A DNA stretch of 43,612 nt from Cytophagaceae bacterium (GTDB lineage Bacteria; Bacteroidota; Bacteroidia; Cytophagales; JAIYAX01): the NCBI GenBank assembly GCA_027488815.1, contig JAIYAX010000003.1, positions 1 through 43,612 on the forward strand, given 5' to 3'. The notes below the pieces were generated by a model, which was not told where the DNA came from, ran no database searches, and was given only the letters and a program-made list of their open reading frames with translations. This document shows positions 32,011 through 43,612 of the stretch, piece after piece. A program made the position numbers and the translations under genes. Positions within the stretch are counted from its first letter, which is position 1. Each line of letters begins with the position of its first letter.

Positions 32011-33132
32011 ATGAAACTATTAAACAACTTCAAACTATTTACCACTTTACAGATTTTTTGCTGTCTCCTTCCATTTTATGGGTTTGGTCAGGTGGTGCCC
32101 GTTACGTCACAAACACAAACTGTAACCCAGCCTTACAACACTTCAGGTCACGCTGGTTTTTTGGGTTTGGGCGCCGTTAATACAGAGACTGCTCAATCAT
32201 CAGCACTTTATTTTTTTACGCCACAAAAACAACTTCATTTAAAGCAATTTGTATTAAGGAGGTCAAGCCCTGCCACTACAGATGTGCCTACAGTTCGTTT
32301 AACAGCAATAGGAGTAGGTGGCCAAAATTGGAACCCTGGAGGTGGAGGGGGGCCTGAGCCAGAAGGCGAAGGACCTAATGGGTTGTATTCCATAAATTCG
32401 GATTTTAACGATTGGTTTGAAAATGCCCAACACCATTGGGACATGGAGGGAAGAACTAATGGTTTCTCGATTTTGCATACCCCTCATGGTCAAACAGTTC
32501 AAAATAGATTTAACATCACCTCAACTGGTCTAATAGGGATAGCTGAGCAATCTCCTCTTTCCAGATTGCATGTGAGAGGGATTAATGAGCTTAGTGACAC
32601 TATCATTTCAAGGTTTGTTTCAGTTAATGGAACCAATGCCTTGGGAATCGGGAAGAACTCCTTAATTGCTATTGGCTCATCTGCAAATCAAAGCATCTAT
32701 TTAAGAGCAAAAGGAACAGGAGGAGTAGGGGTTGGAGTTGAACCTGGCCAACCCGTGAAAGGGAATTTCCAGGTTGTTGGAAAGAGCCTTTTTGGCATCA
32801 GTGCGCCTCCTCAATCTGCTACTAACAATGGTGTATATACGGTAGCAGTAGATGGAGACTTGTACGCCACACGAATATTGGTCATCAGTAAATCCGGATG
32901 GGCAGATGATGTATTTGAACCTGGGTATCAACTGCCATCTCTGAAAGAAACAGAGATCTTTATCAAGAAGAACAAACGCCTGCCTGGGGTTCTTTCAGAG
33001 AAAGAAGTCATGGAGAATGGGCTTGACTTAAAGGCCAGTGATGCAGTGTTGTTACGAAAAATAGAGGAATTAACCTTGCATTTAATCGAGTTAAGTAAAG
33101 AGGTTGAAAGTCTAAAGAAACAGATTAAATAA
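32011..33132 (+). CDS. Secreted fibre-like protein with Bacteroidota C-terminal coiled-coil region
   Basis: The 373-residue protein has a signal peptide (hydrophobic residues 10-24, cleavage probably after YGFGQ), a Gly/Ser/Thr-rich beta body with a GPEPEGEG linker near residue 115, and a C-terminal segment with DDVFEPGYQLPSLKETEIF, then KNKRLPGVLSEKEVMENGLD and a trimeric-looking coiled coil to the end. That ending is common on Bacteroidota surface and tail-fibre-like proteins and resembles the S74 (endosialidase chaperone) assembly region. I do not see the S74 catalytic residues. Only 19 nt separate it from the RHS gene, so it is almost certainly co-transcribed and may help display or deliver the RHS protein; that is inference. 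Confidence 0.78.
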   Translation: MKLLNNFKLFTTLQIFCCLLPFYGFGQVVPVTSQTQTVTQPYNTSGHAGFLGLGAVNTETAQSSALYFFTPQKQLHLKQFVLRRSSPATTDVPTVRLTAIGVGGQNWNPGGGGGPEPEGEGPNGLYSINSDFNDWFENAQHHWDMEGRTNGFSILHTPHGQTVQNRFNITSTGLIGIAEQSPLSRLHVRGINELSDTIISRFVSVNGTNALGIGKNSLIAIGSSANQSIYLRAKGTGGVGVGVEPGQPVKGNFQVVGKSLFGISAPPQSATNNGVYTVAVDGDLYATRILVISKSGWADDVFEPGYQLPSLKETEIFIKKNKRLPGVLSEKEVMENGLDLKASDAVLLRKIEELTLHLIELSKEVESLKKQIK

Positions 33133-33151: not shown

Positions 33152-36100
33152 ATGAAAAATATTGCTGGAATTGCGAAGCAGTCATTTACTGCTGTTTGTT
33201 TAGTGCTTACTGGTTTGTCTGCTTATGCTCAACTTGAGGGGGGCAAGGATTTTGGACAACCCAATGTTCATCGTGTAGAAAAGTCAACCCTTAGTTCCGG
33301 CATGGTTCAGGATAATGTAAACCTGTTCAACGGATCCTTTTCAAGCTCGGTAACACTGGGTACAGTTTCTACTCCGGGTTTAAGCTACACTGCAACTATG
33401 TCTTACAATTCTTCTGTGCAATTAGGTAACAATGAAGAGTTTATGAGTGGCATTCCTTATGGTGAAGGATGGCAGGTGGATATTCCTAAAGTGACTATCG
33501 AATTTACCCCTCAATCATGGGACTTCTATAAAGATTTATTTCAATTTGACCCTTTATGCTCCACTCCATTGCCAGGAGGGGTAATGCCGACTGGATGGAA
33601 TGCGAAAAGAAGAAGAGATTGGTTTAATCCTGTCTTATCGATACCTGGTGTTTTTAGCGGTAAATTGATATTTAAGTTTAATGATGAGAATGGTTTTCCA
33701 GTTTTTGTTCCTGAACGTTTTGAAGAATATATCGAGGCTAAATTAAAATTTACAACAAATAGTTGGTTGCAATACGGGTTTGGGTCTTCTGACTCAAGGA
33801 TTATTGAAGAGAAGTTAGGACCCGAAGGATATAAATTAGTTTACTGGGAAGTGACACTTAAAGACGGAACAATTTACGAGTTTAAACTACCAGTTTATCG
33901 CCAGTATAATGGTAATAATTATCGTCTAAGTAGTTTTAATAGTGATCAAAGTCTTAGAAGAAATATTGTACCAAGTACAGAAACTCCTTTGTGGTACATT
34001 ACAAGAATTTATAAGAAAAGTGAAATACATCAATATATAGATTTTGACTATTTAAGATATGGAAATTATTTTATTTCAGGGGAACATCAGCAATACCATT
34101 TAGCTCGTGGGCTTGCAAATACTTATTTGTCAGATTATGATGAAAGGTATCTTTCAACGTCCGAAATTGATATGCTTTTAAATTATTTTACGTATTTTAT
34201 AACAGGTTTTTACAAGGCAAATAAAATAGGTGATAACCTGAATGGACCTGTATATGACTCCCCTAGAAATGGGATGCTTACCCAGAGTTTTTTCTTTTAT
34301 AAAGAGGTGTTTCCCAAAGCTGTCGTTGCATACCTAGGGAATGGTAAGGAAGATATGGAATATCAAGATGACCTATGGACAGAGTCGCCAAATGCAAGTT
34401 CATTGAGAGACAGTACCGTGATTGATTTAGGTTTGGAACAACACGAAAGACTTGATTTTGAATATAAAAGCAGAAGCATTACAAGTGCTGATAATACAAG
34501 TACTGCACCTTATTCCAACTTAAATTTTCAAGTTAATAGTACAATTCTAAGTCTTGGTCAGCCTGGAGTATCAGCCCTTGATGATTTGTATTTGATGAAA
34601 TCAATTTACTATTGGGGAAAGTATCAGGATGGCCCAATTGTAGGGGGGATACACAGTCCTGTTGCAAGCGATTCCTTTTTCGTGAAGCCGACTTCAACTA
34701 ACAATTTTAATATCAATAGTTCTTCGAGTGATAGAAACACTAAATGGAGAAGGATCAAGAACTTACGGCATTCGAGTTTTATCAGTAATAATAATATAGC
34801 TTGTGATTACATTTATCAGTCTAATGGATTACCACATCCTTCTAACCCTTATGCTTTATATTATGTACAATCACAATCAGGATACCTCTATCACAGTGAA
34901 GAGGATTTAAGTAATTCAGAGGTTATAAATGCTTCTTTTGATCATTCTTTTCTTCAATCTCCGGATATATCTGGAAATTTAATTCCAGGGGATGATTACC
35001 AAATCAGATCAATGATTTTTGCTCCCAGGAGATCTTCAGATGGATCGCATGATCCATCTTATTTTGGCTCTTTTGATTTTGACGTTGCAACCGATGTTCA
35101 AAGATCAAACAATCAACTAATGAAAGTTGATTCACGTAGTTTGTTTTCTACTTTTAATAATCCAATTAAATGGTCTCCTTGGTTGAGTGCATTGAATACT
35201 TATGGCCCTCCTACGGATAATAAAAACGGAATGGTAACGGTCAATACCTTTACATTAGGTAATTACAAGACATCAGTAAATCAACCTGTTTTTATTCGGG
35301 TTGGACCGGCCAATTCTGATCATAATTTTAACTTTCTCAAGTTTGATTATGGTACTAAAGGATTTGAAGAGAATTTGAATCAGCTACCTATTTATCAGCC
35401 CAACTCTATAAATTCTATTCCACCGGGTCACCCTTATTTCAACTATTCCACAAACAATAGTTATACGGGAATAACTCCTAATAGTAATGCGCTTCTGTTT
35501 GAGGAAAAATTTTCTAGTTTCCTTACTTTTTTTAATGAATCAAACATTACCCAAATCATTCCTAGCTATACTAAACCCTATGAACCCATGACCAAAAAAA
35601 ACGAGGCAATTCTAGTCGGCTTTCATAGGAAATTTGATAAAATTGAAATTACTAATTTAGCAGGTAGTGCTAGTACTCCGCCCTATCCTTACATGTATGT
35701 AAATCGCAAAATGCAATACTACAGGGGGGCTACTGCTACATGGGAAGATTTGACTACAAGTACGCCAACTACTTTAAATGAATTAAAAGGTGTTATTCAG
35801 TTTACAGTGCCTACTGATTGGGTTATGAAAGAAGTAAGAGGCTACGATCGGTTTTGGATACGAATTGTAGTTGATGTAGAAGATAACGTTAAGTGGAAAT
35901 GGCCAACCCCACTCTTGCCGAGCCAACTCAGGCTGTTAAGAGAGGGTGAAATCACCTCAGTAAAAGTAAAAATCAGTTCGATGCCTAATGCAGATCCAGT
36001 ATCTCACAATGTTCGGCAACCGGGTGACATAGCGAATACTATTCAACCTTATCCTACTGCATTGTTCTCATATTTTCAACATACGAATCATTTTGTTATA

Positions 36101-39100
36101 AATAGTCAAAGTTCTCCATCTTGTTCAAAACCTCAGTTTCTCCACCCACTTAGAAACACTCCCAATAATTTTGGTGCCGGATTGCCCTGGTTTATGATGC
36201 TTGATTTGTATCATAAGATCTATACTGGTAGTTATGAAGAAGGCAATACTGAAGTTTTGGACAAGAGATCGTTGCCTTTTCTAAGCAATTGGTGGTCGTA
36301 TAAGAAAATTAATAATTCTTCTTCCCCTTGCAATAGTGACACTCCCTGGCCGAATAGACCAACTTTAGCTACTGAAGATACCCGATTAGATCGATTGCAG
36401 TTACTAAGAATTTCGAGGAATACATACATGCTTTCCTCCGTAAAGAAATATGTTCGTCATGGCTTGGTCTCAAATTCTCAATACAAGGTGGGTTACAGTC
36501 CGGGAATGGTCATAGTAGAGCATAAAAACTTCAATTATCGACCGGTTTCCATTCCTGTGTATCTGAACGCAAGACCTGCAAGCCTAACTGCACCTTGCTC
36601 TTCTACTAAAACTTTTGTTTACAATCGACATACTATGCTTCTTACGGGCATTGAAAACAAGGATATCATAAGTAATACTTCCGAGAAGGCATACTCATTT
36701 AATTATGCGAGCTTTCCACTCCAACTTACCAATGGAAGTATTTCAAATTGGAAGGCTGATCCCTCAAAGGTATTCCAATGCTATCATAACGTGCTTTCCG
36801 AACCCATACTCCTTACAGGATATACAAATCCTTTAGGTGCTACTAAAACAATTACTTATTATCCTATCACAGATAGTATGGTTAGGTATATATCCTATAC
36901 TGATGGATTTCGCTCAGCTTACAGGAATAATATGACAAATACCAATAACAATGAGCCATTAAGTAATATCATAGTTTATCTAAACCCAATGGTAAAAGAA
37001 GTTATAGAAACCTCAATACAGGGTAAATCGATCTTAAGGACTTATGAATTTAGTAGGTTTTTTAGAAGAAACACACAGTTGTTTTCTAATACGCAACTTC
37101 TTGAGGCTACGCTACCAGGTACCTTGTATCATGTGATGGCAGAGAAAAATGGTTCTCCGAATAACTATGAATATGGCTTTGAAATAGCTAGAGTTAAATC
37201 ATTTCATTTAACTGGCCAAACCTCACCTTCAACTGTTTTTCTGGGAGAACAGATGTATGCACACGAAACCAATTGGCATTTGTTTGGCAAAGTAAAGTTT
37301 ATCAATACTTACGGACAAAATTTATTGAGGACAAGTCGAAAGTCTTTTGATTGGAACTGGCAGCAAGCCTATTCGGGTGTTCAGGCAAGAATTGGTTCAG
37401 GAAGAGTAGATACAATTGCAAACAAAGGAGAATACAGCGGCTTTCATTTGTCTACACAGCCAGATTTTTGCAACAGAGAACCTTATAACAACACAGAAAT
37501 AGGTGGAAGATCAAGTGACTATATAGACTTTATAACCGGAGTAAGAGACTTTGATAAAGCAGAGGCGACCAGATATACAGGATCATTTAATTTGAACTTA
37601 ACTACTTTTCCAATAACATTTATCAAAAGAAGAGATACCGCTTCCTATTTCATATCTCTTCAAAAATCCGTTGTTACCGAGTATCAATATGCTCCTGTCA
37701 GTTTTCCTGGTACTACTTCACCTGCAAATCATCTGATTAGGGACATGGATAATTGGATAGACATTCAAACTGTAAACAATGCTCATCTATACGGGAATGT
37801 TCCAATAGCAAACAATCTTCAATATCCTTTTTCTAACTTAATGAGCGCAACTCCTATAACCATTAGAATTCTCCAGGAAGTAGAGGAACGAAGGTATTAT
37901 ACGGCAGACCGAACCGGGCGCAGTAACAACAAAGAGTATAAGCGACTTTTGTTTGGTGACTACATGTATAAAGTTGTTCCTAGTTTTAATAAACTTTTGA
38001 ACTATCAGGAGTATGAAAAATTTATAAAATCTACTACGGAAATAGGTTTATCTCAGGCCTATGTTATTAATAGAGGAAATAGCAATAATCCTGAAATAGT
38101 TAGTTTCGAACCCTCTTGGAATGTAAGCAACATCAGAACCTTCAGTCCTCAACGACCAAATGAGAATAAAGAACAATCCTTTTTTTATTATTATGACCTG
38201 CAGAAAGTCCTTGTAAAACCAGATGGTAATTTTCCAAATTTAAGTAAGTTTCCAGATGGCAAGAATGGGTATTTTGCTGCAAGTTTCTTTTACAAAAATG
38301 GAGCTAGAGGCATACCATATAGAATCGATCATTTTACAGGAAACAACGATAAGTTGATCGATCGAAAGACCGAATTCTTTGAATATGACACCTTTATGTT
38401 GAGCTATAAGCAGTATAAAGCGTCATTGTTGGATACTGCTCTTGGTGCGACTTACTTAAGAAAGTTTTATGAGTACTTCCCTCCTTGTAGCCTAAATAAT
38501 TTGTACAGTATGATGAGTGATCTTTTCATCAAAGAAATGCTCACAAACGTTCACATTCCAAGTTGCTTTTATAACAAAGATTACTTTGATAACCTCCTTG
38601 GCCAAAGGAATAGTTCAAATGGACAGAGCTTATCAGTTACTGCCTCAAGTGAGGCGAGAGTAGAAAACAATTCTGCCAGTAGAGAACATTATTTCCCTGA
38701 TTATTTTAGCAAGAGAGTAGTATTCAAGTCTCACTTTGTTTCCATAGATACTACTCATCCTCCCATCTTGAGCAACCCCAATGCCCTTAATGGGGGCTCT
38801 CTGGAACTTTTTGTGCTACCTAACATTGTCGGGACGAATGAAGTACTGAGAACCATCTGGGATTTTAAAATGCCGGTAGTAAGGCAATTGATGATTCATA
38901 AAAGAAACTACTACGGTAGTCCTGAAGTTGTCGAAAATGCAAATGGTTTGTATACCCGGTATATCTACAACTACCCTATGGTAAGACAAATAAGAGATGG
39001 CTCCCAACCCCGTTGTGCTACCAATTCCTACTTATTGCCAGGGCAAAATCCAAACAAAGTAATTGATTTTTGGGCTTCGTACATGTACCATCCGCACCTG

Positions 39101-42100
39101 CCTTCAATGAAAATCGAAGATGTAGCTATATCTGCAACTGAAGGAGGATACCGCAAGTTCGATCCAACATTAAGTTCCAGATACACTTATTACGAATATA
39201 ACAGCAGGAATCTTTTGACAAGTATCAAAGAACACAATGGCTCTAAAATCATCTATGACTATGATGGGTTAAATCGTTTGATCACAGTAATAGAAGATAT
39301 GGAAGTTAAGAAGACTTACACCTACTCCAACTGGAAGCCAACCCAAAGCAATAACAACTATTTGGGAAAGCTTAATTCAAATTATATCGATGAACTAGTG
39401 TTCACCAACTCATACGAAGGAAATATGAGCCGAAGCTATATTGATCCATCAGGCAAACCTATCCATTCTGTGAGCAACACTTTTGAATATGGTCCATCCC
39501 GTAATTTAATCTTTGGGCTAAATTCTAAACATTCGGGTGAAGTAAAATTTGATCATTTTGACCGGCCTTCAAAACAGTTCAAGCATTTCTCCAGAACAAT
39601 CACTGACCCAAGCCAGGCGCTAGCCTTAACGTACAACAGCTCCAATTCCGCTTTTCCGCAGCAAACCTCCGAAATCAAATATTCTAATGATGAGTTTTCC
39701 AGAACACTGGAAACTGCCGACTTCGGAATTGCCCTGGGTTCCACCAATACCGTAGACAACAGCTATACCATGATCAGTGGACCGAACTTGGTGTCGGATT
39801 GCTCCCTGACCTCGCAGGAAGCCGCTGAGCTAATGCCTAGCTATGTATTTGGACAGGCTTCTCAAAGTGTCGAGTATATGTTTAGAAAGACCTCTACCAA
39901 TGACCAGGATGGTAAACAAGTCGATAGCTACCAGGATGCATTAGGGAGGGTAGTCGCCCAGCGCTCCACCATCTCTACCAACAACCATGCGATCACACTG
40001 TTCATTTATAACCCGAGTGACCAGTTGGTGAAGGTCATCGACCCAAGAAAACTGGCCACCACTTATCGGTACAATCTCAATGGATTAGTTATCGAGAAGT
40101 GCAGCCCGGATGAAGGTTGCAAACACTACATGTACGATGCCTCAGGCAGGGTAGTCGTGGAGCAAGATGCAATGTTGAAAACTTCCTTTGCATCTGGAGA
40201 AGGCTATAGGCTATACCATTATGACAAATTTGGTAGCCTATTTAAACAAGAGCGTAGGGTCTTGTATAATACTACCGATATTCCTTTTAGTAACTACTCT
40301 GGGGTAAGCTTCAGGCGCAGTAATACCTTCAGATTTCAAGAGTTTAGCAACTACAAAAAATTTGGAGACCTTGAAGGAACAGCAAACTCCAGCATCATAC
40401 CTGAAAAAGAGTGGGTGTACTATGGCCCAAACATGACTACTCCTATCTATCTTCACTCCAAGGCAAGAAGCTTCTTTAGGGATAGATCATACCGCTGGGG
40501 CAGACTGGCTCATACCCTCTCGTTCAACCACTATGGCAAGGCCGTACAACTCGAAATATACAACTACAACAGCAAGGGGCAGGTCAAAGACTTTGTGGTG
40601 CAGACCAATTTGCGAGGTATGGAAGAGCCTCAGCCGGGTAGTGTTCATCTCATCCGAAACACCTACTCCTACACCGGCCAGCTTGACAAGCAGGAGATCG
40701 ATATCAATATGGACTGCAGGCTCGACTTCTACACCCGGTACATCTATGACCGCTATGACCGGCTGAAGGAAGTGTATGCAGGGCACCAGAGCAATGCCGC
40801 AAACCCCTACAAGATTGCCTCCTACCAGTATCGGGATCAGGATGATCTGCTGAGCAAGGCGAGCTACCATCAAAACAACCAGCTGATTAACGATGCCTTT
40901 TATTACTACGATGCCAACAGGGACCGGCTGACCCGAATGGACGATGCGCACTTGACCTGGGACCTGTTTTATGACAATACGATGCCTGCAGGTGTGACAG
41001 GCATAGCGCCTAACTACAACGGCAACATCAATGCTACCAAATCTCTTTACAAATGGACGGCAGCAGGCCTGGGAGTAGTGGGCCGTACCTACCGGTACCA
41101 GTACGATGACATGAACAGGCTCACGTTTGCAGGTACGGACCAGGCAGCCAATGGGGTAAACGGTGATGAAACGTTTGTTTACGATAAATCAGGTAACTTC
41201 TTCAGTATCTCAAGAGTGACAAACTCTGGTAACCGTACTGTCAACTACGCCTATGTTTCAAATACCAATAGGCTGGGGAGCACTTCAATTGGGAGCCAAC
41301 TGGATAAGTCAATGGAGTACGACCATAATGGGAACATGACCCAGAACGGCAGAGTGGGTCTTGACTACAAGTTATTCAAATATGGTCAATCCAACCTGCC
41401 CTATGCCTACTACAGAGATATACCACCAACGAATGGCGGCCATACGAATGAAGACAGCCTTTGGCTGCTCTATGGCGTAAATGATTTACGCATAGGGTTG
41501 TATCAACCCAATCATACCTATCTGGATGCAGGCATCAGCCACTACCTACGAGACCATACCGGGCGTGAGCTGGCCATGAACAAGCAAAACGCTGATGGCA
41601 CAAACAGCAAATGGACCTACTATCTGTTTGGCCATGGAGGGCAGCGAATTGCCAGCTATACACCTGACGTTTTCCGTCAGCCAGATGCCAATTTTTACCA
41701 GGGTATAGCACTTGGAGGCAATACAGACCCACATATGGTTACGGCAGAGGCCTATCCATTAACTACCACAGGCCCGCATGACTACTGGATAGGAGCAGCA
41801 GGTGCATTAGAAGTGGGGAGATTAAGAGTACCAACAAATTTACTAGGCTCAACCTACTTTACCTACCAGACCTCCCCGGACCTCAACACGAAACACCACC
41901 TGCGCATGGTCTCCAACGATCACATTGAGCTACGGGAGGGAGCCACCATCGGAGGGCTGGAAGCTGAAAGCAGAGTGTCGATTTTCACCCTTGACCCCGG
42001 GGCATTTTGTACTACCTTTGATAATACCGATATGCCGGGCATGAAGTACCATACCTACGACCACCTGGGCAGTTTGCGTGTGACCTACCGCCGATCTGGT

Positions 42101-42952
42101 GCCAGCCTGCCCGTAGACGCCCTCTACGAGTACAGCCCCTATGGCAGGGTGGTGCAGACCTACCAGGCAGCAGGGCGAGACCGCTACCTGAGCACGGGCC
42201 ATGAGCGTGAGGAAGCGACCAACTACGACTACCGCCTTGCCCGCCTATACGATGCCGAGCTGGGTAGGTTTTTGGGGGTGGATGCTCTGGCGGGGAAATT
42301 CCCAGGGTGGAGTTCGTATAATTATGTATTTGCTAACCCGATAAGGTTTGTCGATCCGGATGGGAGAAGACCTTTTCCAGTAAATGATTATTATCTAGCA
42401 GAAAGATTTAGAATAGATTCATGGTTTGGCCCAAGAAATACAGGGTTAAAATATGCCAGTAGAGTACATAAAGGTCTTGATTTTAATTTTGGAGCTGGGA
42501 AATTTGATTATGGTGCTCCTGTTTTAAGTACACATGACGGTATCGTTACTATAAAGGATGACATGTCAGGAAATACTGGCCGTATGGTAACGGTAACATC
42601 CCCGGATGGATCATTTAGGACAAAATATATGCATCTAAAGTCAATTAATGTAAAAGAGGGTCAAGAAATCAATGAGTCGACACAAATTGGAGAAATAGGA
42701 GGATCGAGATCAGGTAAAGAGCAAGGAGGGTTAGTTCATTTGCATTACCAAATTGAAAAGCTAAATAAAGTGTCTAAAATTTGGGAGCATTATAATCCAA
42801 CAGAAGAAAAAGGAAATTCTAAAGAAAACGTCGTTGACCCTCAAACATGGATCAATGCTAAAGCCGAAGACAATATGAGGGATTCAAAATTGATTGAGCA
42901 AGATAATACTAGAATGGAAATGTTGGCCCCTATGATTAGAAAGGAACCATAA
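33152..42952 (+). CDS. Giant secreted RHS-repeat protein with C-terminal M23 peptidase domain (candidate polymorphic toxin)
   Basis: The 3266-residue protein has a Sec signal peptide (residues 1-26, AYAQ), an N-terminal region with VNLFNGSFSSSVTLGTV and GEGW typical of RHS/YD proteins, a long beta-rich middle, RHS/YD repeats from about residue 2010 (for example YDYDGLNRLITVIE), and the RHS core at 2970-3071 from DHLGS through YDYRLARLYDAELGRFLGVD to DPDG (3068-3071). After DPDG comes a 195-residue tip with M23 motifs: H3106 and D3110 in HKGLD, H3161 in YMHLKS, and H3196/H3198 in HLHYQ, the full LytM zinc and catalytic set. It should cut peptidoglycan cross-links. No T9SS sorting tail is visible. 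The gene is AT-rich except for a GC-rich core. A lipoprotein gene follows 2 nt later. Confidence 0.9.
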   Translation: MKNIAGIAKQSFTAVCLVLTGLSAYAQLEGGKDFGQPNVHRVEKSTLSSGMVQDNVNLFNGSFSSSVTLGTVSTPGLSYTATMSYNSSVQLGNNEEFMSGIPYGEGWQVDIPKVTIEFTPQSWDFYKDLFQFDPLCSTPLPGGVMPTGWNAKRRRDWFNPVLSIPGVFSGKLIFKFNDENGFPVFVPERFEEYIEAKLKFTTNSWLQYGFGSSDSRIIEEKLGPEGYKLVYWEVTLKDGTIYEFKLPVYRQYNGNNYRLSSFNSDQSLRRNIVPSTETPLWYITRIYKKSEIHQYIDFDYLRYGNYFISGEHQQYHLARGLANTYLSDYDERYLSTSEIDMLLNYFTYFITGFYKANKIGDNLNGPVYDSPRNGMLTQSFFFYKEVFPKAVVAYLGNGKEDMEYQDDLWTESPNASSLRDSTVIDLGLEQHERLDFEYKSRSITSADNTSTAPYSNLNFQVNSTILSLGQPGVSALDDLYLMKSIYYWGKYQDGPIVGGIHSPVASDSFFVKPTSTNNFNINSSSSDRNTKWRRIKNLRHSSFISNNNIACDYIYQSNGLPHPSNPYALYYVQSQSGYLYHSEEDLSNSEVINASFDHSFLQSPDISGNLIPGDDYQIRSMIFAPRRSSDGSHDPSYFGSFDFDVATDVQRSNNQLMKVDSRSLFSTFNNPIKWSPWLSALNTYGPPTDNKNGMVTVNTFTLGNYKTSVNQPVFIRVGPANSDHNFNFLKFDYGTKGFEENLNQLPIYQPNSINSIPPGHPYFNYSTNNSYTGITPNSNALLFEEKFSSFLTFFNESNITQIIPSYTKPYEPMTKKNEAILVGFHRKFDKIEITNLAGSASTPPYPYMYVNRKMQYYRGATATWEDLTTSTPTTLNELKGVIQFTVPTDWVMKEVRGYDRFWIRIVVDVEDNVKWKWPTPLLPSQLRLLREGEITSVKVKISSMPNADPVSHNVRQPGDIANTIQPYPTALFSYFQHTNHFVINSQSSPSCSKPQFLHPLRNTPNNFGAGLPWFMMLDLYHKIYTGSYEEGNTEVLDKRSLPFLSNWWSYKKINNSSSPCNSDTPWPNRPTLATEDTRLDRLQLLRISRNTYMLSSVKKYVRHGLVSNSQYKVGYSPGMVIVEHKNFNYRPVSIPVYLNARPASLTAPCSSTKTFVYNRHTMLLTGIENKDIISNTSEKAYSFNYASFPLQLTNGSISNWKADPSKVFQCYHNVLSEPILLTGYTNPLGATKTITYYPITDSMVRYISYTDGFRSAYRNNMTNTNNNEPLSNIIVYLNPMVKEVIETSIQGKSILRTYEFSRFFRRNTQLFSNTQLLEATLPGTLYHVMAEKNGSPNNYEYGFEIARVKSFHLTGQTSPSTVFLGEQMYAHETNWHLFGKVKFINTYGQNLLRTSRKSFDWNWQQAYSGVQARIGSGRVDTIANKGEYSGFHLSTQPDFCNREPYNNTEIGGRSSDYIDFITGVRDFDKAEATRYTGSFNLNLTTFPITFIKRRDTASYFISLQKSVVTEYQYAPVSFPGTTSPANHLIRDMDNWIDIQTVNNAHLYGNVPIANNLQYPFSNLMSATPITIRILQEVEERRYYTADRTGRSNNKEYKRLLFGDYMYKVVPSFNKLLNYQEYEKFIKSTTEIGLSQAYVINRGNSNNPEIVSFEPSWNVSNIRTFSPQRPNENKEQSFFYYYDLQKVLVKPDGNFPNLSKFPDGKNGYFAASFFYKNGARGIPYRIDHFTGNNDKLIDRKTEFFEYDTFMLSYKQYKASLLDTALGATYLRKFYEYFPPCSLNNLYSMMSDLFIKEMLTNVHIPSCFYNKDYFDNLLGQRNSSNGQSLSVTASSEARVENNSASREHYFPDYFSKRVVFKSHFVSIDTTHPPILSNPNALNGGSLELFVLPNIVGTNEVLRTIWDFKMPVVRQLMIHKRNYYGSPEVVENANGLYTRYIYNYPMVRQIRDGSQPRCATNSYLLPGQNPNKVIDFWASYMYHPHLPSMKIEDVAISATEGGYRKFDPTLSSRYTYYEYNSRNLLTSIKEHNGSKIIYDYDGLNRLITVIEDMEVKKTYTYSNWKPTQSNNNYLGKLNSNYIDELVFTNSYEGNMSRSYIDPSGKPIHSVSNTFEYGPSRNLIFGLNSKHSGEVKFDHFDRPSKQFKHFSRTITDPSQALALTYNSSNSAFPQQTSEIKYSNDEFSRTLETADFGIALGSTNTVDNSYTMISGPNLVSDCSLTSQEAAELMPSYVFGQASQSVEYMFRKTSTNDQDGKQVDSYQDALGRVVAQRSTISTNNHAITLFIYNPSDQLVKVIDPRKLATTYRYNLNGLVIEKCSPDEGCKHYMYDASGRVVVEQDAMLKTSFASGEGYRLYHYDKFGSLFKQERRVLYNTTDIPFSNYSGVSFRRSNTFRFQEFSNYKKFGDLEGTANSSIIPEKEWVYYGPNMTTPIYLHSKARSFFRDRSYRWGRLAHTLSFNHYGKAVQLEIYNYNSKGQVKDFVVQTNLRGMEEPQPGSVHLIRNTYSYTGQLDKQEIDINMDCRLDFYTRYIYDRYDRLKEVYAGHQSNAANPYKIASYQYRDQDDLLSKASYHQNNQLINDAFYYYDANRDRLTRMDDAHLTWDLFYDNTMPAGVTGIAPNYNGNINATKSLYKWTAAGLGVVGRTYRYQYDDMNRLTFAGTDQAANGVNGDETFVYDKSGNFFSISRVTNSGNRTVNYAYVSNTNRLGSTSIGSQLDKSMEYDHNGNMTQNGRVGLDYKLFKYGQSNLPYAYYRDIPPTNGGHTNEDSLWLLYGVNDLRIGLYQPNHTYLDAGISHYLRDHTGRELAMNKQNADGTNSKWTYYLFGHGGQRIASYTPDVFRQPDANFYQGIALGGNTDPHMVTAEAYPLTTTGPHDYWIGAAGALEVGRLRVPTNLLGSTYFTYQTSPDLNTKHHLRMVSNDHIELREGATIGGLEAESRVSIFTLDPGAFCTTFDNTDMPGMKYHTYDHLGSLRVTYRRSGASLPVDALYEYSPYGRVVQTYQAAGRDRYLSTGHEREEATNYDYRLARLYDAELGRFLGVDALAGKFPGWSSYNYVFANPIRFVDPDGRRPFPVNDYYLAERFRIDSWFGPRNTGLKYASRVHKGLDFNFGAGKFDYGAPVLSTHDGIVTIKDDMSGNTGRMVTVTSPDGSFRTKYMHLKSINVKEGQEINESTQIGEIGGSRSGKEQGGLVHLHYQIEKLNKVSKIWEHYNPTEEKGNSKENVVDPQTWINAKAEDNMRDSKLIEQDNTRMEMLAPMIRKEP

Positions 42953-42954
42953 AA

Positions 42955-43398
42955 ATGAGACAACCCATGAGGCATTTCTTCTTCTTTTTCTTCTTAATTA
43001 ACTTTCTGTCAGGATGTACAAGAAACAAAGGTGATGATAAGTCTAACACAACTCCTGATTCGAATAAATCCCCTTCAATTGTAGCGATGGAAGATTTTAA
43101 GTTTTTCTTTAAAAAATTTAAAGAAGATAGTTTTTTTCAAACCCAGAGAGTAGACAAGCCATTGATATTATTAATCGTTGATGAGGAAAACATAGAAAAG
43201 ACTAGTGAGTTAGTCAATTATGTTTCATTTAATCAGAAAGATTGGGATGGGAAAATTGTTTTGAAATTTGAAAACATTTCTAAAGATACCGTTAATGTGA
43301 TTTTAGGATTAGAAGATACTGGGGTACATATTGAGCATTTATTTGTAAACAGAAGTAATAAGTGGTATTTGTATCAAATAGGTAACTTTTCTGATTAA
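42955..43398 (+). CDS. Small lipoprotein, candidate immunity protein (DUF4348-like)
   Basis: The 147-residue protein has a lipoprotein signal with an unusual run of six Phe, then LSGC (lipidated Cys at residue 21), an Asp/Ser/Asn-rich tether and a compact domain beginning EDFKFFFKKFKEDSFFQ and ending WYLYQIGNFSD. That pattern resembles DUF4348 lipoproteins of Bacteroidota, a tentative match from memory. The start codon is 2 nt after the RHS stop, so expression is coupled. A periplasm-facing lipoprotein is where protection against a peptidoglycan peptidase would be needed, hence the immunity hypothesis. An in-frame ATG at 42967 is a possible alternative start. Confidence 0.75.
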   Translation: MRQPMRHFFFFFFLINFLSGCTRNKGDDKSNTTPDSNKSPSIVAMEDFKFFFKKFKEDSFFQTQRVDKPLILLIVDEENIEKTSELVNYVSFNQKDWDGKIVLKFENISKDTVNVILGLEDTGVHIEHLFVNRSNKWYLYQIGNFSD

Positions 43399-43415
43399 TA
43401 GATTAGGCTTTCCCC

Positions 43416-43612
43416 ATTCCCCATTGGTTGGTGTTCCGTCACCAACCAAGTTTTTATCTGCTGGGCAAGACTGTTATGATTATTGGATTCCCCATTGGTT
43501 GGTGTTCCGCCGCAAACCAAATTTTTATCTGCTGGGGCAAGACAGTTATGATTCCCCTTTGGTTGGTGTTCCGCCGCAAACCAAATTTTTATCTGCTGGG
43601 GCAAGACAGTTA
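43416..43612 (+). repeat. Tandem ~64-bp repeat array (at least three copies, continues past the window)
   Basis: Copies start at 43416, 43487 and 43551, each opening with ATTCCCC. Copies 2 and 3 are nearly identical over 62 nt; copy 1 differs at several bases and has about 8 extra bases at its end. Each copy contains an inverted TTGGTT/AACCAA repeat followed by TTTTTATCTG and CTGGGGCAAGAC (one G fewer in copy 1). The array is cut by the window edge. Confidence 0.9.
43424..43455 (+). terminator. Terminator-like hairpin in repeat copy 1, after the lipoprotein gene
   Basis: TTGGTTGGTG (43424-43433) pairs perfectly with CACCAACCAA (43440-43449) around TTCCGT, followed by G and TTTTT. It begins 26 nt after the lipoprotein stop codon and probably ends the fibre-RHS-lipoprotein transcript. 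The equivalent hairpins in copies 2 and 3 have one mismatch and one wobble pair. Confidence 0.75.

What the first reader, a model, noticed from the sequence alone, without database searches (positions are those of the whole stretch)
42366..43398. Candidate peptidoglycan-targeting toxin-immunity pair: RHS-M23 tip plus adjacent lipoprotein
Sequence shows an RHS core ending at DPDG (residues 3068-3071) followed directly by a 195-residue domain with every M23/LytM motif (HKGLD, YMHL, HLH). Two nt after its stop lies a small lipoprotein. In polymorphic toxin systems the variable tip follows the RHS core and the immunity gene follows the toxin gene. A cell-wall peptidase calls for protection in the periplasm, which a lipoprotein provides. 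A DUF4348-like lipoprotein as the immunity partner of an RHS-M23 toxin is not something I know to be described.
Basis: partly seen in the sequence, partly recalled or inferred. Interest (0 to 1): 0.8.

Follow-up and report, generated by a model that had tools for sequence, protein, structure and literature searches.

The report
Wall-cutting toxin tip with lipoprotein antidote
A giant bacterial weapon protein ends in a predicted cell-wall-cutting enzyme, and the gene right behind it encodes a membrane-anchored protein of an unstudied family that repeatedly accompanies this same enzyme in other bacteria, so it is very probably the antidote that protects the producer.

Summary
A 3266-aa RHS protein (33152-42952) has its RHS-associated core ending at DPDG (42353-42364), then a 195-aa tip with a complete M23/LytM active site. 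Two nt after its stop lies a 147-aa lipoprotein (42955-43398) that is a divergent member of DUF4348, an NTF2-like family. The toxin-immunity reading is well supported by comparison. Of ten M23-tipped RHS genes found, six are followed directly by a DUF4348-like lipoprotein, and three of the other four by a different exported protein. None of 36 other-tip RHS cassettes has a DUF4348 neighbour. A second copy of the core in the same genome is 95% identical up to the first base after DPDG and then unrelated, and GC drops from 51% to 36/30% there: the tip-immunity cassette is exchangeable. DUF4348-like lipoproteins otherwise mostly stand alone; in one family of the class a two-domain form sits next to murB. 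No toxicity, binding or delivery was shown, and structure prediction could not test the complex. This is a new toxin-immunity pair, with a probably new immunity family, inside the known RHS polymorphic-toxin scheme.

The parts
33152..42952 (+). RHS polymorphic toxin gene, 3266 aa, N-terminal Sec-type leader (MKNIAGIAKQSFTAVCLVLTGLSAYAQ)
   Evidence: ORF; RHS_repeat, YD repeat and Rhs_assc_core matches; leader read from the sequence
42131..42364 (+). RHS-associated core, residues 2994-3071, ending DPDG
   Evidence: TIGR03696; 95% identical second copy on contig C15 that stops matching at 42365
42365..42952 (+). Variable C-terminal tip, 195 aa, including stop; low GC (35.7% against 51.5% in the core region)
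42464..42766 (+). M23/LytM zinc metallopeptidase domain; predicted zinc and catalytic residues H3106, D3110, H3161, H3196, H3198
   Evidence: PF01551 E 2e-17; PDB relatives TagE, ShyA, DipM, lysostaphin; residues invariant in five aligned tips
42955..43398 (+). DUF4348-like lipoprotein, 147 aa, predicted immunity protein
42955..43017 (+). Lipoprotein leader and lipobox (NFLSG-C21)
   Evidence: sequence; Cys conserved in at least 90% of 21 family members
43087..43380 (+). DUF4348 / NTF2-like domain, residues 45-142
   Evidence: PF14254 E 4e-4; family profile vs 4mjf 7e-31 and 3sbu 2e-28

Best explanation
The two genes are an exchangeable toxin-immunity cassette of an RHS polymorphic toxin. The RHS protein is exported (leader), its RHS repeats form the carrier, and the C-terminal M23 tip is released into the periplasm of neighbouring bacteria, where it cuts the peptide part of peptidoglycan. 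The lipoprotein, anchored in a membrane and facing the periplasm of the producer and its kin, protects against the tip, most likely by binding it and blocking the zinc cleft. Shown here: anatomy, intact catalytic residues, cassette boundary, and repeated tip-specific pairing. Inferred: toxicity, delivery, periplasmic side of the anchor, and direct inhibition.
For: Complete M23 signature. Same core, 95% identical, with an unrelated end in the same genome, and a GC step at the junction. The genome carries further RHS arrays in which nearly every core-tip is followed at once by a small gene. Six of ten M23-tipped RHS genes have a DUF4348-like lipoprotein directly downstream, 0 of 36 RHS cassettes with other tips do (Fisher P 2e-5; leaving out the window and the one found through the lipoprotein, 4 of 8, P 5e-4). 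DUF4348-like genes are rare: 26 of 395 genomes of the class. Three of the other four M23 tips are followed by another exported protein, as a periplasmic target requires. Tip and lipoprotein distances correlate over six pairs (r 0.67, 18 of 720 permutations as high).
Against: No toxicity, binding or rescue data. The linked-chain AlphaFold model gave a confident M23 domain but no confident lipoprotein, so no interface. DUF4348-like proteins mostly occur without a toxin and the paired ones are not one clade. The distance correlation leans on one close pair. The control cassettes are not phylogenetically independent. The delivery route was not examined.
Confidence: 0.78

Rival explanations
1. The pair is toxin and immunity, but the lipoprotein does not inhibit the enzyme; it protects by changing or shielding the producer's peptidoglycan or by helping export, as modification-type immunity does for lysostaphin-like M23 bacteriocins.
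For: Known immunity to lysostaphin and zoocin A works by altering the wall (own knowledge). Toxin tips are more alike than the lipoproteins, e.g. 57% against 26% for window and L107, which is loose for a tight interface.
Against: The lipoprotein is a small NTF2-like domain with no known wall-modifying enzyme homology; non-catalytic NTF2-like immunity proteins are established (PMC3482391).
Confidence: 0.12
2. The M23 tip is not a warhead but helps the RHS protein cross or remodel the wall (self or target), and the lipoprotein is an adaptor or regulator of that enzyme.
For: M23 domains are common in envelope machines (one search lists SpoIIQ, EnvC and a phage ejectosome). NTF2-like DUF3828 proteins linked to wall hydrolases were proposed as regulators (PMC3924330).
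Against: The tip sits in the exchangeable position where the same core elsewhere carries a different end, and the G357 array keeps it as one of several alternative tips.
Confidence: 0.07
3. The lipoprotein is an unrelated housekeeping or orphan gene that lies there by chance.
For: DUF4348-like genes mostly stand alone; the contig ends 214 nt downstream, so the neighbourhood is not fully seen.
Against: Six pairs in distinct genomes against a rough background of 2.5e-5 per gene, estimated (binomial P about 3e-17 for 4 of 8).
Confidence: 0.02

Closest known systems
RHS polymorphic toxins with variable C-terminal tips and downstream immunity genes (Zhang et al. 2012, PMC3482391)
   Same: RHS core with DPxG end, exchangeable tip, immunity gene directly downstream, arrays of alternative cassettes in the genome
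   Different: That survey has no M23 in the text held (0 occurrences) and knows one lipoprotein immunity, Imm65 with Tox-JAB-1
Imm-NTF2 and Imm-NTF2-2 immunity proteins
   Same: NTF2-like fold, non-catalytic, next to a toxin
   Different: Linked to Tox-NucA and Tox-JAB-2, not M23; no NTF2 immunity family among the Pfam matches of the window protein
DUF4348 (PF14254) and BACOVA_00961-like (PF22057) NTF2-like proteins, PDB 3sbu, 4mjf, 2ml5, 2ml6, 4r4k
   Same: Sequence family of the lipoprotein
   Different: Function unknown; no paper in the searched library mentions DUF4348; most members have no toxin beside them
DUF3828 NTF2-like proteins in operons with NlpC/P60 (sometimes M23 or lysozyme) proteins (PMC3924330)
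   Same: NTF2-like exported protein paired with a wall hydrolase
   Different: Different Pfam family; hydrolases not described there as RHS toxins; proposed as regulators
T6SS effectors with M23 domains (Tpe4/14/18/24 of Acinetobacter, PMC6833914; WHIX effectors, PMC12135965)
   Same: M23 peptidase as an antibacterial warhead, exported immunity protein
   Different: LysM or WHIX carriers delivered by T6SS, not an RHS protein with a Sec leader in Bacteroidota
Lysostaphin and zoocin A
   Same: M23 peptidase fold used as a killing factor
   Different: Secreted bacteriocins with wall-modifying immunity (own knowledge)

Membership tests
RHS polymorphic toxin | RHS/YD repeats and RHS-associated core | tested here: met
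RHS polymorphic toxin | C-terminal domain directly after the core differs between copies of the same core | tested here: met
   C15 copy, 527/553 identical up to 42365, then unrelated
RHS polymorphic toxin | Immunity gene directly downstream, specific to the tip type | tested here: met
   6 of 10 M23 tips, 0 of 36 other tips
RHS polymorphic toxin | Tip is toxic and neighbour protects | not testable with these tools
   needs expression
M23 (LytM/lysostaphin) peptidase | Pfam model and HxxxD, H, HxH residues | tested here: met
M23 (LytM/lysostaphin) peptidase | Cleaves peptidoglycan peptides | not testable with these tools
   needs assay
DUF4348 (PF14254) | Score over Pfam gathering threshold | tested here: not met
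   window protein 20.3 bits against 27.2; partners in L110, L111 and L105 pass
DUF4348 (PF14254) | Homology by profile of relatives | tested here: met
   all 21 aligned members match PF14254 at E 0.01 or better; profile vs 4mjf 7e-31
Bacterial lipoprotein | N-terminal hydrophobic leader with lipobox Cys | tested here: met
   LSGC at residues 18-21; Cys conserved; read by eye, no dedicated predictor

The most novel reading that the evidence does not exclude
DUF4348-like lipoproteins are a general family of M23 endopeptidase inhibitors in Bacteroidota: a two-domain housekeeping form beside murB restrains the cell's own wall peptidases, patchy single-domain forms are orphan immunity genes, and RHS-M23 cassettes recruited them more than once as cognate antidotes.
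Probability: 0.2. Interest if true: 0.7.

Novelty: new member of a known kind. Interest (0 to 1): 0.52.

Why it matters
It gives a first testable function to DUF4348, a family with at least two solved structures and no described role in the literature searched, and adds M23 to the RHS toxin repertoire of Bacteroidota together with its antidote. If the antidote blocks M23 enzymes directly, it would be a natural inhibitor of a widespread wall-peptidase class.

Tried and rejected
First genome-contig scan with the tip alone found nothing; the scan with a two-sequence alignment succeeded. A fused core+M23 profile mostly returned separate RHS and housekeeping M23 genes. Plasmid and viral searches found nothing. 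Structure of the lipoprotein alone was poor (mean pLDDT 46), so it was not used for a fold search. I rejected 'chance neighbour' and 'RHS-generic neighbour' (0 of 36). The paired lipoproteins as one dedicated clade were not supported.

Full report
Observation. The 3266-aa ORF (33152-42952) and the 147-aa ORF (42955-43398) are real. The RHS-associated core (TIGR03696) covers residues 2994-3071, ending at DPDG. The following 195 residues hold a Pfam M23 domain at E 2e-17, with H3106, D3110, H3161, H3196 and H3198, the zinc-site and catalytic positions of LytM-type peptidases; sequence relatives in the PDB are TagE, ShyA, DipM and lysostaphin. The tip starts at 42365, one base earlier than stated. 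The lipoprotein has a canonical LSGC lipobox. Alone it matches DUF4348 weakly (E 4e-4, below threshold) and the NTF2-like structure 3sbu at E 3e-4. A profile of it and 20 relatives finds 4mjf at 7e-31 and 3sbu at 2e-28, and all 21 match PF14254.

Cassette structure. The same genome has eleven RHS cores. Contigs C26 and C27 carry runs of RHS core-tip genes, nearly all followed at once by a small gene. The end of contig C15 holds a second copy of this core, 527 of 553 bases identical, ending exactly at 42365; beyond it the C15 copy stops after five codons and is followed by another small gene. GC falls from 51.5% in the core region to 35.7% in the tip and 30.0% in the lipoprotein. This is what tip exchange at the core boundary would leave.

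Co-occurrence, from the lipoprotein side. Searching 390 genomes of the order with the lipoprotein gave about 20 true relatives. One, G357, lies directly behind a 2154-aa RHS protein with an M23 tip; that gene heads an array of further RHS cassettes with other tips. In 395 genomes of the class, 26 have a relative by profile, and among the loci held none but the window's lies next to an RHS-M23 gene.

Co-occurrence, from the tip side. A scan of 84,980 species genomes with an alignment of the tip found four further RHS-M23 genes with 39-61% identical tips: Chitinophagaceae MAG L107, L109 (labelled Methylophilaceae, possibly misbinned), Aestuariibaculum L110, Flavobacteriaceae L111. All four are followed within 13 nt by a lipoprotein of the DUF4348-like family. 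Three more M23-tipped RHS genes came from the class search, and one from the order search. Their neighbours are a DUF4738 lipoprotein 272 nt away (G810), a Sel1-repeat lipoprotein (G784), a transposase-like gene (G810, second copy) and an unrelated protein with a signal peptide (G008). A 1138-aa Flavobacterium protein with an SLT-like and a closely similar M23 domain, not RHS, is followed by two lipoproteins, one weakly DUF4738-like. So M23 warheads go with exported neighbours in general and with DUF4348-like ones most often.

Control. Among 46 distinct RHS cassettes in the loci held, 37 with non-M23 tips have no DUF4348-like neighbour (36 with a readable downstream ORF), against 5 of 9 M23 tips, or 6 of 10 with L109, whose core fell under the threshold. 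Fisher P is 2e-5, and 5e-4 after leaving out the window and the G357 gene. The cassettes are not independent in descent, so these P values are guides.

Evolution. Tip and lipoprotein identities correlate over six pairs (r 0.67, 18 of 720 permutations as high), mostly through the close L110/L111 pair. The tree of 55 DUF4348 domains does not place the paired ones in one clade; well-supported branches force at least two changes of state. Either the family was recruited more than once, or stand-alone members are orphan immunity genes.

Structure. The M23 part of a linked L111 tip+lipoprotein model is confident and matches ShyA, LytU and lysostaphin. The lipoprotein part and the lipoprotein alone are not, so no statement on an interface is possible.

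Literature. No paper in the searched library holds 'DUF4348'. NTF2-like immunity proteins are known, and one lipoprotein immunity (Imm65) is noted, in PMC3482391, whose held text has no M23. NTF2-like DUF3828 proteins in operons with NlpC/P60 wall hydrolases were proposed as regulators (PMC3924330). M23 T6SS effectors are known. The pair is therefore a new member of a known kind, with an immunity family that seems undescribed; most subscription journals and preprints were not searchable.

Verdict. Toxin-immunity pair: well supported by comparative genomics, not by experiment. Direct inhibition of the zinc enzyme: plausible, untested.

Noticed in passing
L142, L148, L151, L157, L161, L162: In six genomes of one family (f30 of the same class) a two-domain DUF4348 lipoprotein gene lies 3-93 nt from a murB-like gene, like an operon (murB confirmed by NCBIfam for L142 and L148; by N-terminal sequence for the others). 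This links the DUF to wall synthesis.
   Followed up: partly
43415-43612: Three direct repeats of about 63 nt (two 98% identical) at the contig end; related copies on contigs C5, C7, C14 and C28 of the same genome. They probably broke the assembly.
   Followed up: partly
L045:7970-9194: Copy of the window's RHS core followed by only five residues and a stop, then a 214-aa gene of no Pfam family: looks like a cassette that lost its tip but kept an immunity-like gene.
   Followed up: partly
L042, L043 (contigs C26, C27): Arrays of RHS core-tip plus small-gene cassettes, most with no Pfam match to tip or neighbour: a source of undescribed toxin-immunity candidates.
   Followed up: partly
L100 / L108 (Flavobacterium sp. 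ALJ2): 1138-aa non-RHS protein with SLT-like and M23 domains, the latter 44% identical to the window tip, next to a second copy of its C-terminal region: the same warhead on another carrier.
   Followed up: partly
L105:7891-13487 (G357): Further cassettes in the G357 array: one tip has an L,D-transpeptidase-like motif (HPDGGNYIGTQGCIGL), another an HExxH-like motif (HEKQH), each followed by a gene with a leader.
   Followed up: no
32011-33132: 373-aa exported protein with no Pfam match directly upstream of the RHS gene (19 nt), ending in a short coiled coil.
   Followed up: no
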